A stretch of DNA of 44,971 bases from Gemmatimonadota bacterium (lineage in GTDB: Bacteria > Gemmatimonadota > Gemmatimonadetes > Gemmatimonadales > GWC2-71-9): positions 1-44,971 of the forward strand of contig JADFPO010000018.1 in the NCBI GenBank assembly GCA_022562295.1, written 5' to 3'. This document shows positions 31,537 to 37,400 of this stretch, piece by piece (position 1 is the first letter of the stretch; every line of letters starts with the position of its first letter). Made by a program: the position numbers and the translations under genes. The notes below the pieces were generated by a model that did not search any database, was not told where the DNA came from, and worked only from the letters and a program-made list of their open reading frames with translations.

Positions 31537-32298
31537 ATGTTCCCCTACAAGGACGACAATCCGACGGTACTGACTCCGTTCATGACGGTGGGCATCATCG
31601 CCGCCACGTCGGCCATCTGGATCCTGTACCAAGGGGGTGGTGCAGAGCCGCGCCTCTCTCAATCCGTGTGCGACCTCGGCGCGATTCCTGCCCGTCTGTT
31701 CGGCTACCCTGTCCAGGCCATCCTCACGCCGCGCGGTCCGGTGACTGTGTGCGGTGGAGTCGGGGGCGGGGCGTGGCATACCATCGTGTCTTCCGTGTTT
31801 CTCCACGGCGGTTGGTTTCACCTGATCGGGAACATGTGGTTCCTCTGGATCTTCGGAAACAACATCGAGGACGCGATGGGACCACGCCGCTTCGTGGCGT
31901 TCTACTTGCTTGCCGGGGTGCTCGCGGCGTTGGCCCAGATTTTCTCTGATCGGTCGTCTCCCCTGCCGCTGGTCGGAGCGTCCGGGGCCGTTAGCGCCAT
32001 CATGGGGGCCTACGTCGTGCTGTATCCCAAGGTTCGGGTCCACTCGATTCTGGTTCTTGGGTTCTTCATTACTCGGATCTCGCTACCGGCCTACGTCATG
32101 CTGCTGTATTGGGCGGCGCTCCAGATGGTAGGGTCGCTGGTCGGCGGACAATCCGCCGGTGGGGTGGCGTTTGTCGCGCACCTGGGCGGGTTTGCGGCGG
32201 GTGTCGTGATGATTAAGCTCTTCACGAAACCCGATCTTCTCGCTGCCGCACGGCGCCAGCCGCTCATGTTCACAACGAGCCAGCCCTGGCGGTATTGA
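31537..32298 (+). CDS. Rhomboid family intramembrane serine protease
   Basis: The 253-residue membrane protein has six or more helices. The catalytic dyad is present: Ser149 in LVGASGAVSAIMGAY and His215 in FVAHLGGFAAGV. HGGWFHLIGNMWFLWIFGNNIEDAMG is the conserved loop-1/helix-2 region with the oxyanion His and Asn. Rhomboids cut single-pass membrane proteins within the bilayer. It is the first gene of the run leading into the microcompartment vertex genes: its TGA abuts the GTG of the next gene with no gap. Why it would be tied to a nucleoside/BMC set is unclear; its partner may simply be a conserved neighbour. Confidence 0.9.
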   Translation: MFPYKDDNPTVLTPFMTVGIIAATSAIWILYQGGGAEPRLSQSVCDLGAIPARLFGYPVQAILTPRGPVTVCGGVGGGAWHTIVSSVFLHGGWFHLIGNMWFLWIFGNNIEDAMGPRRFVAFYLLAGVLAALAQIFSDRSSPLPLVGASGAVSAIMGAYVVLYPKVRVHSILVLGFFITRISLPAYVMLLYWAALQMVGSLVGGQSAGGVAFVAHLGGFAAGVVMIKLFTKPDLLAAARRQPLMFTTSQPWRY

Positions 32299-32589
32299 GT
32301 GTACTTGGCACGTATCGTGGGGACCGTGGTCGCGACCGTCAAGCAAGCCACCCTCAAAGGTCAGACACTCCAATGGATTCAGCCGATCGACGCGTCCCAA
32401 AACGATCGGGGGTCGCCAGTAGTGGCTGTGGATCCCATTGGACTCGGCCCGGGCGAATTGTGCTATTACGTCACCGCCAGGGAGGCGTCACTGACCTTGT
32501 GGGACACGTTTGCTGCGGTCGACGCGGCAATCGTGGGCAAGGTGGACAGAATCGATCTGGATGACGGGTGGGCCAGCGGGGAACGGTGA
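32299..32589 (+). CDS. EutN/CcmL-family BMC vertex protein (BMC-P), divergent copy
   Basis: The 96-residue protein starts at GTG 32299, directly after the rhomboid stop. MYLARIVGTVVATVKQATLKGQTLQWIQPID is the usual BMC-P opening, and DAAIVGKVDRIDL the usual closing strand. In the middle the family's glycine-rich hinge is changed to IGLGPGELCYYVTAREASLTL, lacking the ordinary GSSAR/GSAAR turn. It also carries an extra C-terminal DDGWASGER tail. BMC-P proteins form pentamers that cap the vertices of polyhedral microcompartments. This copy and the next gene (34 bases downstream) are probably paralogs with different positions or partners. Confidence 0.82.
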   Translation: MYLARIVGTVVATVKQATLKGQTLQWIQPIDASQNDRGSPVVAVDPIGLGPGELCYYVTAREASLTLWDTFAAVDAAIVGKVDRIDLDDGWASGER

Positions 32590-32622: not shown

Positions 32623-32898
32623 ATGTATCTCGCTAGAGTCGTGGGAGACGTCGTGTCCACCCATAAGAACGATCGTCTGGTTGGGAAGAAACTGTTATTG
32701 GTACGGAAACTGGGCCTCGACGATGGTCCGGACGGATCCATTGAGGTCATCGCGCTCGACGTGGTCGACGCCGGTGTTGGCGACAAGGTGTTGGTGGTGC
32801 AAGAGGGATCATCGGCGCGCAAGATCTTCCAGGACGAGAAGATCCCCGTGCAGGCGGTCATCGTGGGCGTCGTCGACAGTGTGGACCTTCGGCCGTGA
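32623..32898 (+). CDS. EutN/CcmL-family BMC vertex protein (BMC-P)
   Basis: The 91-residue protein is a standard-looking BMC-P. It begins MYLARVVGDVVSTHKNDRLVGKKLLLVRKL, then has the hallmark hinge VVDAGVGDKVLVVQEGSSARKIF and ends PVQAVIVGVVDSVDL. Five copies would make the pentameric cap of an icosahedral shell vertex. The stop TGA overlaps the GTG of deoC (GTGA), coupling shell protein to enzyme production. Together with its divergent neighbour it is the main evidence that a microcompartment is involved. No hexameric BMC-H or trimeric BMC-T gene is found in this window. Confidence 0.92.
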   Translation: MYLARVVGDVVSTHKNDRLVGKKLLLVRKLGLDDGPDGSIEVIALDVVDAGVGDKVLVVQEGSSARKIFQDEKIPVQAVIVGVVDSVDLRP

Positions 32899-33779
32899 AC
32901 GAGCGGGAGATCGACGAACTGGCGCGCGCCGTGGTCGAACGCCTGGGAGTACCACCCGGATTTGGGGGAGGAGGGAGGAGGGAGGAGGGAGGAGGAATAC
33001 GGGGTGGTTGGGGGTGGCCCCCTCCCTCCTCCCCCCTCCCTCCGTCCGATATCACATTAGCCGGTCTGGTGGACCATACTCTGCTGGCAGCCGACGCGAC
33101 GCGAGCGGATATCGAGCGACTGTGTGATGAAGCGCTGGCGCATCGCTTCGCGGCGGTGTGCGTCAACGGCGGGTGGGTGTCGCTTTGTGCGGGGCGGTTG
33201 CTGGGCAGTGGGGTGAAAGTCGCCGCGGTAGTCGGATTTCCGCTCGGTGCGACGACGTCGTCCGCGAAGGCGTTCGAGGCACGGAATCTCGTCGACGAAG
33301 GGGCGGACGAGCTGGACATGGTTGCCCCGATCGGTCGCCTGCTCGACGGAGATTGGGACTACGTCGAAGCTGATATCTCGGGTGTGGTACGATCCTGCGG
33401 TGGGCGAATCGTGAAGGTCATTCTCGAGACGGCCGTCTTGACGCCCATTGAAATAGTGAAGGCATCGGCGTTAGCGAAGGAAGCCGGGGCGTCGTTCGTC
33501 AAGACGTCGACCGGGTTCCACGCGGCCGGCGGTGCGACCGTGGAAGCCGTGGCGCTGATGCGAGAGGCCGTGGGGAGGGGGGGAACCATCGGGGTCAAAG
33601 CGTCCGGCGGTATTCATAGCTGTGCCAGCGCGCTGCAGATGCTGGGCGCCGGCGCGTCGCGGCTTGGAACATCGTCCGGCGTATCGCTGGTCGAATGCAT
33701 CGGTGTCGATGCGCATCCATTCGACGACCTCGTAGCCCATCCGGCACGGCACGCAGCGGCGTGTAGATTTTGTGACTAG
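32895..33779 (+). CDS. deoC: Deoxyribose-phosphate aldolase with putative encapsulation peptide
   Basis: DeoC cleaves 2-deoxyribose-5-phosphate to acetaldehyde and glyceraldehyde-3-phosphate. The start is GTG 32895, overlapping the vertex-protein stop; 294 residues. The aldolase domain (about 52-294) is complete: Asp141 in DELDMVAPIG, Schiff-base Lys203 in FVKTSTGFHAAGG, and Lys235 in GVKASGGI. Ahead of it, residues 1-18 (NEREIDELARAVVERLG) form a short amphipathic helix like the targeting peptides of BMC cargo enzymes. It is joined by a Gly/Arg/Pro-rich linker (19-51) that ordinary DeoC lacks. The linker is encoded by a 15-bp palindrome with G-rich and C-rich arms. The inference is that it is cargo in a shell, containing the acetaldehyde. 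Confidence 0.93.
   Translation: MNEREIDELARAVVERLGVPPGFGGGGRREEGGGIRGGWGWPPPSSPLPPSDITLAGLVDHTLLAADATRADIERLCDEALAHRFAAVCVNGGWVSLCAGRLLGSGVKVAAVVGFPLGATTSSAKAFEARNLVDEGADELDMVAPIGRLLDGDWDYVEADISGVVRSCGGRIVKVILETAVLTPIEIVKASALAKEAGASFVKTSTGFHAAGGATVEAVALMREAVGRGGTIGVKASGGIHSCASALQMLGAGASRLGTSSGVSLVECIGVDAHPFDDLVAHPARHAAACRFCD
32964..33043. repeat. G/A-rich and C/T-rich inverted repeat inside deoC
   Basis: GGGGGAGGAGGGAGG (32964-32978) is perfectly complementary to CCTCCCTCCTCCCCC (33021-33035). Further GGAGG words follow on the left (to 32997) and CCTCC words on the right (33018-33043). The element is in frame and encodes the Gly/Arg/Glu then Pro/Ser linker of DeoC. The G arm could also form a quadruplex on the plus strand. 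Confidence 0.8.
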
Positions 33780-33817: not shown

Positions 33818-34045
33818 ATGAACGAACAGGTCAAGATCTTCGTCAACGAACGCGGCGTTGAAATCCCGCCGGGCACGCCCGTCTCCGAAGCCGTCCGGGC
33901 GTTCGATGCGGCGCTGGGCGAAGCATTGCGTGCCGGTGCTGCGTACGTGACCGATGGGGTGGGCCGACGCATCGATGTCGCCAGCGTGGTGAACGAGGGA
34001 GCCATCCTTCGGGTCGTCAAGACCGCACGCCGTGTTGAGCGGTAG
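33818..34045 (+). CDS. Small protein with ThiS/MoaD-like (beta-grasp) look
   Basis: The 75-residue protein starts at ATG 33818. The opening VKIFVNERGVEIPPGTPVSEAVRAFD matches the first hairpin and helix of the ubiquitin-like ThiS/MoaD fold. It continues with AYVTDGVGRRIDVASVVNEGAILRVV, suggesting the remaining strands. It lacks the C-terminal Gly-Gly that sulfur carriers need, ending in KTARRVER, so a thiocarboxylate role is unlikely. It sits 38 bases after deoC and 12 bases before adenosine deaminase, inside the operon, so it may bind one of these enzymes or the shell. The family name is not known to me. Confidence 0.6.
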   Translation: MNEQVKIFVNERGVEIPPGTPVSEAVRAFDAALGEALRAGAAYVTDGVGRRIDVASVVNEGAILRVVKTARRVER

Positions 34046-34057
34046 CGCGGCGGCGTT

Positions 34058-35083
34058 TTGACGGTCACGAGAGAACTGATCCGACGATTGCCGAAGGCCG
34101 AGTTGCACGTGCATCTGGACGGCTGTCTCCGGCCTGCGACGATGCTCGAACTTGCCGAGGAGGCTGGCGTTGCGCTTCCAGCGAACGACGCCGAAGCGCT
34201 GGCCGAGGCCATGCTGGTGCGTCACGCCAACAGCGTAGAGGAGTACCTCGAGCGCTATCGGTACACGGTGGCAGTGTTGCAGACTCCGGCGGCACTCGAG
34301 CGTGTCGCGTACGAATTCGTGGTAGATGTCGCGCGGGAGAACGTACGCTACGTAGAGGTGAGGTTCGGCCCCGCCCTGCACGTCCCGGCGATGAGCTTGG
34401 CGCAGGCGATCGAGGCGCCGTTGGCGGGAATCAAGCGCGCCACCGAGGAGACGGGTACTCGCGTGTCGTTGATCGCCTGCGCGCTGCGAACGATGTCCCC
34501 ATCCATCTCGAACGACGTGGCACACGCGGCGGTGGACTATCGAGATGAAGGAGTGGTCGCCTTCGACCTGGCGGGTTCGGAGCGGGGGCATCCAGCTCGC
34601 GATCACGCGGCGTCCTTCCGATATGCCTCACGACACGGTCTTCACTGCACGTGTCACGCCGGGGAGGGAGACGGTCCGGACTCGGTTCGTCAGGCGCTGC
34701 ACGATTGCGGCGCCACGCGGATCGGTCACGGGACGCGCATCCTGGAAGACCCGACCCTCGAGAGGTACGTTTGCGAGCGTCGGATACCCTTGGAAGTGTG
34801 CCTATCCTCCAATGTGCACACCAGGACTGTCGAGGCAGCGGCGGCCCACCCGGTGCGGCGGTATATGGATGCCGGCTGCGTCGTGACTCTGAATACGGAT
34901 GGCCGTTTGATGGATGGCGTATCACTCACAGACGAATTGTGGATGGCCCATACGGAGTTGGGTTTCACCCGCGAGGAGATCGATCGAGTGATCGTGAACA
35001 CGTTCGAAAGCGCGTTCCTGCCGGATGGAGTGAAGACGGATCTAGTCGCGCAGGTAAAGAGAGAGCTGGGAGAGATATCGTGA
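34058..35083 (+). CDS. add: Adenosine deaminase
   Basis: The enzyme hydrolytically deaminates adenosine and deoxyadenosine to inosine and deoxyinosine. The start is TTG 34058 (MTVTRELIRRLPKAELHVHL), 341 residues. Zinc and catalytic residues are present: His17 and His19 (HVHLDG), His200 and Glu203 (CHAGEGDGP), His224 (IGHGTR) and Asp281. Where animal and E. coli enzymes read NTDDP, this one has NTDGRLMDGVSLT, the pattern close to actinobacterial ADAs (NTDNRLMSG). The stop overlaps the GTG start of the transporter gene. It supplies 6-oxopurine nucleosides to the phosphorylase encoded two genes later. A close homologue such as an aminofutalosine deaminase cannot be fully excluded. Confidence 0.9.
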   Translation: MTVTRELIRRLPKAELHVHLDGCLRPATMLELAEEAGVALPANDAEALAEAMLVRHANSVEEYLERYRYTVAVLQTPAALERVAYEFVVDVARENVRYVEVRFGPALHVPAMSLAQAIEAPLAGIKRATEETGTRVSLIACALRTMSPSISNDVAHAAVDYRDEGVVAFDLAGSERGHPARDHAASFRYASRHGLHCTCHAGEGDGPDSVRQALHDCGATRIGHGTRILEDPTLERYVCERRIPLEVCLSSNVHTRTVEAAAAHPVRRYMDAGCVVTLNTDGRLMDGVSLTDELWMAHTELGFTREEIDRVIVNTFESAFLPDGVKTDLVAQVKRELGEIS

Positions 35084-36599: not shown

Positions 36600-37400
36600 A
36601 TGAACGCGACGACGGCATTTCTCAGAGGACGAGTCGGATCGCGGGAGCCACGTGTCGGTATCGTGTTGGGGTCGGGACTCGGAGGCCTCGCTGACGCCGT
36701 CGAGGAATCGCTGGTAGTCCGCTATGCCGACATTCCCGGTTTTCCCGACTCGAGTGTCGCCGGACACAGGGGCGAGTTGGTCTTCGGGCGGATCGGTGAG
36801 ACGGAAGTCGTGTTGCAGGCCGGACGCTTCCACCTGTACGAAGGTCACGATCCTCAGACGGTCGTCTTGCCTGTGCGGACGTTCGCCGAACTCGGTGTCG
36901 AAACCCTGATCGTCACGAATGCTGCCGGCGGCATTTGCCCGACGTTCAGTCCTCCGGTTCTCATGCTGATTGCGGACCACATCAACCTGATGTGGCGGAA
37001 TCCATTGCTCGGACGGGTCGGGGCTGGGGAGTCACGTTTTCCGGACATGTCCGAACCATACTGCCCGTCGCTTCGGACGTTGGCGCGGCGGCGGGCTCTC
37101 GAGGTCGGCGTCTCGCTCGAGGAAGGCGTGTATGCAGGTGTGTTGGGCCCGAACTATGAGACGCCAGCCGAGATTCGCATGCTGAGCCGGCTGGGCGCCG
37201 ATGCCGTCGGCATGTCCACCGTGCCGGAGGTCATCGCTGCTCGTGCCAGGGGCATGAGGGTGCTTGGGATCTCTACGATCACGAATCTCGCCAGCGGGAT
37301 TTCGCCGTCGAAGCTGGATCATACCGAGGTTCTCGCTGCCGGTGCCGCGGTGACGAACTCGCTGGAGGCGGTGGTGCGCGGCGTACTCGGGGCGCCGTAG
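36600..37400 (+). CDS. Purine nucleoside phosphorylase (trimeric, 6-oxopurine type)
   Basis: PNP splits inosine, guanosine and their deoxy forms with phosphate, giving the base and (deoxy)ribose-1-phosphate. The 266 residues show VGIVLGSGLGGLADAV, VAGHRGELVFGRI, GRFHLYEGHD, VTNAAGGI, the substrate loop VLGPNYETPAEIRML, VGMSTVPEVIAARA and ISTITNLASGI. The Glu of NYET and Asn of ITN correspond to the two residues that select 6-oxopurines in trimeric PNPs, fitting a place after adenosine deaminase. ATG 36600 is chosen; ribosome site weak. It is separated from nupC by 137 bases with a palindrome. A phosphopentomutase to link it with DeoC is not in the window. Confidence 0.93.
   Translation: MNATTAFLRGRVGSREPRVGIVLGSGLGGLADAVEESLVVRYADIPGFPDSSVAGHRGELVFGRIGETEVVLQAGRFHLYEGHDPQTVVLPVRTFAELGVETLIVTNAAGGICPTFSPPVLMLIADHINLMWRNPLLGRVGAGESRFPDMSEPYCPSLRTLARRRALEVGVSLEEGVYAGVLGPNYETPAEIRMLSRLGADAVGMSTVPEVIAARARGMRVLGISTITNLASGISPSKLDHTEVLAAGAAVTNSLEAVVRGVLGAP

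What the first reader, a model, noticed from the sequence alone, without database searches (positions are those of the whole stretch)
32895..33051. Encapsulation-peptide-like helix on the N-terminus of DeoC
Residues 1-18 (NEREIDELARAVVERLG) form an amphipathic helix followed by a non-conserved Gly/Pro-rich linker before the aldolase core. This is the architecture of cargo-targeting peptides in Pdu and Eut enzymes. Ordinary DeoC starts near the segment equivalent to residue 52. Helix and linker are seen directly; targeting is inferred from known cargo design and the adjacent vertex genes.
Basis: partly seen in the sequence, partly recalled or inferred. Interest (0 to 1): 0.72.

Follow-up and report, generated by a model that had tools for sequence, protein, structure and literature searches.

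The report
Shell-targeting tag on DeoC aldolase
A bacterial enzyme that splits DNA-derived sugar carries at its front end a short helix that also occurs on two partner enzymes and very probably loads it into a protein-shelled organelle, which suggests what this so far unexplained organelle of Gemmatimonadota does: break down deoxyribose from dead DNA.

Summary
Confirmed and largely upheld. DeoC (GTG 32895-33779) starts with the helix MNEREIDELARAVVERL (AlphaFold helix 3-17), then a disordered stretch, then a normal aldolase core. It overlaps the second of two BMC-P (vertex) genes. In 17 of 18 Gemmatimonadota DeoC genes linked to this BMC (three families) the same helix type is present. A profile trained on DeoC helices alone, slid over 35,954 windows of neighbouring proteins, ranks three PduL N-termini 1-3 and two BMC aldehyde dehydrogenase C-termini 6 and 10: one tag on three unrelated enzymes. 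The third BMC-P lies behind deoB in every genome checked. DeoC is thus probably the aldehyde-making cargo of a scattered (FRAG-like) deoxyribose metabolosome. BMC-H and AldDH are missing from this assembly probably because PduL sits at a contig end. Encapsulation itself is inferred, not shown.

The parts
32299..32589 (+). BMC-P (EutN/CcmL) vertex protein 1, 96 aa
   Evidence: PF03319, E 5e-21
32623..32898 (+). BMC-P (EutN/CcmL) vertex protein 2, 91 aa; its stop overlaps the DeoC start (GTGA)
   Evidence: PF03319, E 2.8e-25; coordinates
32895..33779 (+). DeoC, 2-deoxyribose-5-phosphate aldolase with N-terminal tag, 294 aa; the only close DeoC found in the genome
   Evidence: PF01791 E 2.2e-15; DERA structures E 1e-59; single match in G000
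32895..32948 (+). encapsulation-peptide-like segment, residues 1-18 MNEREIDELARAVVERLG; helix residues 3-17
   Evidence: AlphaFold helix 3-17, pLDDT about 85; conserved in 16 further orthologs; same profile found on PduL and AldDH
32964..33043 (.). (GGGAGGA)n inverted-repeat element read in frame as the Gly/Pro-rich linker; arms 32970-32995 / 33018-33043
   Evidence: RNA fold -65.6 kcal/mol, z -2.55
33060..33776 (+). aldolase core of DeoC (from about residue 56)
34058..35083 (+). adenosine deaminase, same strand downstream (nucleoside catabolism context)
   Evidence: PF00962 E 1.9e-99
36600..37400 (+). purine nucleoside phosphorylase family, same strand downstream
   Evidence: PF01048 E 4.4e-51

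Best explanation
The N-terminal helix of this DeoC is an encapsulation peptide (EP). DeoC is the aldehyde-producing cargo of a bacterial microcompartment whose genes are scattered over at least three loci in Gemmatimonadota: [BMC-P, BMC-P, deoC], [deoB, BMC-P] and [BMC-H, BMC-H, aldehyde dehydrogenase, PduL]. The helices of DeoC (N-terminal), PduL (N-terminal) and AldDH (C-terminal) bring the three enzymes together and to the inner face of the shell. [quoted passage not shown] AldDH and PduL turn acetaldehyde into acetyl-CoA and acetyl-phosphate while the shell holds the aldehyde. Shown: gene order, predicted helix and disordered linker, shared motif, co-occurrence. Inferred: shell binding, encapsulation, substrate and flux. 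In this genome the linker has been overwritten by a repeat element that kept the reading frame, consistent with a linker that needs only to be flexible.
For: Helix 3-17, disordered 25-42, confident core. 17 of 18 BMC-linked DeoC proteins in families f1-f3 start with the same type of helix, behind the BMC-P genes. A profile from DeoC helices alone scores 13 PduL N-termini at mean 17.9 against -15 for shuffles, 0 of 20,000 permutations of the set reaching it; among 35,954 windows of proteins of these loci the top three are PduL residues 2-18, and AldDH C-termini rank 6 and 10; a linker and C-terminal helix-like tail ends AldDH in all 13 genomes where it could be read. In all 18 genomes with a readable third BMC-P of this type it lies directly behind deoB. 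BMC-less relatives have DnaK-rhomboid-deoC without the BMC-P pair, and most lack the helix. Among 80 DeoC loci of named organisms, BMC-P in the locus goes with EP-like extensions in Holophagaceae, Spirochaetes, Chloroflexi and a Gemmatimonadetes MAG. PduL of G000 lies 60 bases from the end of contig C183, which explains the missing AldDH and BMC-H. EP definition and SPU/HO precedent: PMC8217296.
Against: No localisation or binding data. G034, same genus with BMC-P, BMC-H and PduL, has a DeoC without helix and linker, so the tag is dispensable there or was lost. G033 (95% complete, no BMC genes) still encodes the helix behind a ribosome-binding-site-like sequence. BMC-H and AldDH were not found in G000 itself. 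BMC presence changes only about three times on the DeoC tree, too few for a significant test of association. The hydrophobic moment of the single window helix is marginal (p 0.051).
Confidence: 0.84

Rival explanations
1. The helix is a cargo-clustering (condensation) tag that binds the helices of PduL and AldDH rather than the shell; encapsulation follows indirectly.
For: Same helix type on three enzymes; published EPs of Pdu form bundles and condensates by themselves (PMC12339742) and co-aggregate (PMC7221423).
Against: Not exclusive of shell binding; binding of the PduL EP to grooves between shell hexamers is reported (PMC11157265).
Confidence: 0.3
2. The helix is an ordinary N-terminal extension of DeoC in this bacterial group with a non-BMC role (stability, oligomerisation).
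For: BMC-less G033 and G051 keep helix-like starts, with weak possible relics in G043, G044 and G053.
Against: Most BMC-less orthologs at the same place (rhomboid-deoC) lack it; scores there are at most 5.2 against 27-39; it does not explain the same motif on PduL and AldDH; BMC-less G033/G035/G050-G052 nest inside the BMC-bearing clade.
Confidence: 0.1
3. In this particular genome the tag is already non-functional: a decaying microcompartment, with the DeoC linker overwritten by a repeat and BMC-H and AldDH lost.
For: No BMC-H and no BMC-type AldDH in the assembly; linker replaced by repeat element; same-genus G034 lost the helix; C-terminal Tyr of orthologs missing.
Against: All three BMC-P genes are open; PduL is cut by a contig end exactly where AldDH and BMC-H are expected; the helix of G000 scores 36, among the highest.
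Confidence: 0.12

Closest known systems
Encapsulation peptides of Pdu enzymes (PduP, PduD, PduL)
   Same: 15-20 residue terminal amphipathic helix plus flexible, poorly conserved linker on an enzyme core, found on several enzymes of one BMC (definition from PMC8217296 and PMC11157265)
   Different: Here on DeoC; AldDH carries it at the C-terminus; no experiment yet
SPU (sugar phosphate utilisation) BMCs, Axen 2014 and Sutter 2021
   Same: DeoC-type aldolase with AldDH in a BMC, proposed use of DNA debris
   Different: SPU loci hold shell and enzyme genes together and share pfam02502 (RpiB); here they are scattered and no RpiB gene was noticed beside them; AldDH EP is C-terminal
HO (Haliangium ochraceum) BMC satellite locus
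   Same: [quoted passage not shown] some pfam01791 aldolases with an EP-like extension (PMC8217296)
   Different: No BMC-T in most genomes here (G032 has one, with a PduS-like protein); different phylum; type not tested with shell-protein HMMs
FRAG BMCs (Sutter 2021)
   Same: No main locus, three BMC-P, reported in Gemmatimonadetes, occasional proximal AldDh
   Different: FRAG has no assigned signature enzyme; here EP-tagged DeoC is a candidate

Membership tests
Encapsulation peptide | 15-20 residue amphipathic helix at a terminus of a cargo enzyme | tested here: met
   Helix 3-17 in the model; moment 0.58, p 0.051 against shuffles, 0.27-0.66 in DeoC orthologs of BMC genomes
Encapsulation peptide | flexible, poorly conserved linker to the core | tested here: met
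   Residues 25-42 pLDDT <50; linker 35-73 aa, poorly alignable between families
Encapsulation peptide | same type of helix on other cargo enzymes of the same BMC | tested here: met
   PduL N-termini and AldDH C-termini found by a DeoC-helix profile, in relatives; in G000 itself those parts lie beyond a contig end
Encapsulation peptide | necessary or sufficient for encapsulation | not testable with these tools
   needs localisation experiments
   Lost or degenerate in most, but kept in weaker form in G033 and G051
DeoC/LacD aldolase (PF01791), DERA | profile match and match to solved DERAs | tested here: met
   E 2.2e-15, 1.4e-59 to 8qps
FRAG BMC | shell genes in several separate places without a locus holding both BMC-H and BMC-P | tested here: met
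   G086, G032, G087, G034: BMC-H, BMC-P pair and third BMC-P on different contigs; in G000 BMC-H not seen
FRAG BMC | BMC-P triplet with the clade pattern of Sutter 2021 | tested here: inconclusive
   three BMC-P in nearly all; clade assignment not tested
SPU BMC | pfam01791 aldolase plus pfam02502 RpiB in the BMC locus | tested here: inconclusive
   aldolase yes; RpiB not noticed beside the genes, not searched for by profile
HO BMC | HO-type AldDh and double-stacked BMC-T shell proteins | not tested
   two-domain BMC hits absent from most f1 genomes of this type, but type-specific HMMs not available

The most novel reading that the evidence does not exclude
The scattered BMCs of Gemmatimonadota, filed as FRAG with no known signature enzyme, are deoxyribonucleoside metabolosomes whose signature enzyme is the EP-tagged DeoC beside two of the three BMC-P genes, fed by DeoB beside the third; and lineages that lost the organelle keep decaying tags on DeoC as molecular fossils.
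Probability: 0.6. Interest if true: 0.65.

Novelty: new member of a known kind. Interest (0 to 1): 0.52.

Why it matters
The 2021 BMC catalogue leaves the function of FRAG-type BMCs open and says that no signature enzyme is obvious. A tag shared by DeoC, PduL and AldDH, with deoC and deoB each beside shell genes, gives a specific prediction (deoxynucleoside use through encapsulated acetaldehyde) that one localisation or growth experiment can test, and shows how cargo can be assigned by its tag when the genes are scattered. The BMC-less relatives offer a natural series of tag decay after organelle loss.

Tried and rejected
Alternative downstream start codon: rejected, none between the helix and the core. 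'No shell because no BMC-H': taken as an assembly gap, since PduL ends at the contig edge and same-genus G034 has BMC-H, AldDH and PduL in one row. Linker as a conserved spacer: rejected; orthologs of f1 and f3 share a D-x-[SA]-W-R-[MG]-P motif that G000 lacks, and its linker is repeat DNA. Independent-pairs test of BMC against helix: only 2-3 pairs, cannot reach significance. dN/dS of the short helix: 0.11 in f1 (one usable pair), 0.4-0.5 in f2 and f3, too few sites to weigh. A comparison with the Salmonella PduP 18-mer was left out because its letters were only recalled; the passages searched did not print it. Modelling of the helix in complex with shell proteins was not possible with single-chain prediction.

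Full report
WHAT IS THERE. The window is contig C141 (44,971 bp) of a 3.79 Mb genome, 94.6% complete; the named relative with the same gene arrangement is a Gemmatimonadetes MAG (L110). On the + strand lie rhomboid (31537-32298), two EutN/CcmL vertex genes (32299-32589, 32623-32898), deoC (32895-33779), a small unnamed ORF (33818-34045), adenosine deaminase (34058-35083), a nucleoside-transporter-like ORF (named by eye from its sequence, not tested by a profile) and a purine nucleoside phosphorylase (36600-37400). deoC begins with GTG inside the stop of the second vertex gene.

THE HELIX AND LINKER. AlphaFold with 20 homologous rows gives helix 3-17 (first two 10-residue blocks: mean pLDDT 85 and 83), disorder at 25-42 (<50) and a confident core. 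No start codon is available between helix and core except a GTG inside the helix and one inside the first core strand. Of 72 DeoC loci from other organisms without BMC-P, 68 have a start codon within 15 residues of the core, so the extra 50 or so residues are unusual.

THE LINKER OF THIS COPY IS A REPEAT ELEMENT. Bases 32964-33043 are tandem GGGAGGA heptamers facing an inverted copy (26-nt arms, 92% complementary), found nowhere else in the window. The 15-mer GGAGGAGGGAGGAGG occurs at seven places of the genome; the longer motif is common in G000, G033, G056 and G084 but absent from most of the family. Other copies lie in gaps or at gene ends, sometimes extending reading frames (L006, L008, L011). 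In orthologs the linker is 39-73 aa and different in sequence; f1 and f3 orthologs share a D-x-[SA]-W-R-[MG]-P motif that this copy lacks.

ORTHOLOGS WITH THE MICROCOMPARTMENT. In the family 9 of 102 genomes have BMC-P, and the same genomes apart from G000 have BMC-H; in the phylum sample 34 of 395 have BMC-P. In f1, f2 and f3 the order is DnaK, rhomboid, BMC-P, BMC-P, deoC (in G401 the two BMC-P are about 11 kb apart, and in G032 and G382 part of the row was not seen in the stretch). Seventeen of 18 such DeoC proteins start with M-x-x-x-[EL]-[IL]-x-x-[LI]-A-type helices or the one-residue shorter f2 form; G034 has lost helix and linker. In most f2 and f3 genes a purine-rich, ribosome-binding-site-like stretch precedes that start.

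THE SAME TAG ON OTHER ENZYMES. The BMC-H locus of relatives runs BMC-H, BMC-H, aldehyde dehydrogenase, PduL. A position-specific profile from the 17 DeoC helices scored 13 PduL N-termini at mean 17.9 (shuffles -15.2, sd 7.2; none of 20,000 permutations of the set reached it). Slid over 35,954 windows of predicted proteins of these loci, its three best windows were residues 2-18 of three PduL proteins, and two AldDH C-termini came 6th and 10th. The cores belong to different families (PF06130, PF00171, PF01791), so the shared helix is best read as a common address. AldDH ends in a linker and such a tail in all 13 genomes where it could be read (judged by eye beyond the two that the profile ranked).

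WHY G000 SHOWS NO BMC-H. Its PduL is at C183:10328-10855 of a 10,915-base contig, minus strand, cut on the N-terminal side where AldDH and BMC-H are expected; a BMC-type AldDH is not found elsewhere. I take this as a gap in the assembly.

DEOXYRIBOSE CONTEXT. In all 18 genomes with a readable third BMC-P gene of this type, it lies directly downstream of deoB, phosphopentomutase (the name rests on homology to one ORF of L041, read by eye as DeoB, whose N-terminal 110 residues match the Metalloenzyme superfamily only weakly). With PNP and adenosine deaminase in the window this spells deoxynucleoside to deoxyribose-5-phosphate to acetaldehyde plus glyceraldehyde-3-phosphate (established DeoB/DeoC biochemistry, from general knowledge).

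G033 and G035 (same genus) and G050-G052 have no BMC-P or BMC-H, and G033, G035 and G051 have no PduL; where seen, their deoC lies directly behind rhomboid. G033 keeps MSEYEIDDVARAVVADFRKR with GGAGGG upstream, G051 keeps MDRAELDRITARVLQEWGG; G035 is degenerate, G050 and G052 have none. Profile scores are 5.2 (G033), 0.1 (G051), -1.2 (G035), -6.2 (G050) and -27.6 (G052), against 27-39 in BMC genomes (which trained the profile; their leave-one-out scores average 26, lowest 15). On the DeoC tree all five nest inside the BMC-bearing f1 clade (branches 97/91 and 95/82). Loss of the organelle followed by decay of the tag explains this best, but with about three changes of BMC state the association cannot be tested for significance.

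KNOWN BACKGROUND. PMC8217296 defines EPs and describes SPU BMCs with DeoC, a satellite locus of HO BMCs with two BMC-P and an aldolase, EP-like extensions on some pfam01791 proteins, and FRAG BMCs (scattered, BMC-P triplet, in Gemmatimonadetes, no obvious signature enzyme). PMC4207490 reported a DeoC-bearing SPU locus in a Gemmatimonadetes single-cell genome. I found no paper that assigns DeoC to the scattered type, though supplementary files could not be read and subscription journals are not held.

VERDICT. The tag is a new member of a known kind; its value lies in what it says about an unexplained BMC class.

Noticed in passing
window 32964-33043; L004-L017, L250-L261: A dispersed (GGGAGGA)n inverted-repeat element in G000, G033, G056 and G084; at several places it extends the ends of reading frames, and in deoC it sits inside an interdomain linker in frame. 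A change of heptamer copy number would shift the frame.
   Followed up: partly
window 33750-33776: Orthologs in BMC genomes end in H-x3-C-(x)n-C ... Tyr; G000 ends HAAACRFCD without the terminal Tyr (G033, G034 and G051 lack it too). A C-terminal Tyr is catalytic in E. coli DERA (recalled, not tested).
   Followed up: partly
L072 6773-7470: G034, same genus and with BMC genes, has a DeoC without helix, linker and tail, starting right at the BMC-P stop.
   Followed up: partly
L041 7911-9744 and 17 other loci: Third BMC-P gene directly downstream of deoB in every genome of this type checked.
   Followed up: yes
L079 7872-9807: G032 has an additional locus with a two-domain BMC-T and a PduS-like protein.
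   Followed up: no
window 33818-34045: Small ORF after deoC (75 aa, ThiS-like by eye), also present in G033 and G034; no Pfam match.
   Followed up: no
L062, L063, L227, L229, L231: Other Gemmatimonadota carry a different, contiguous SPU-like locus whose DeoC has another N-terminal helix (LDEKTLERVIEQITHEVL).
   Followed up: partly
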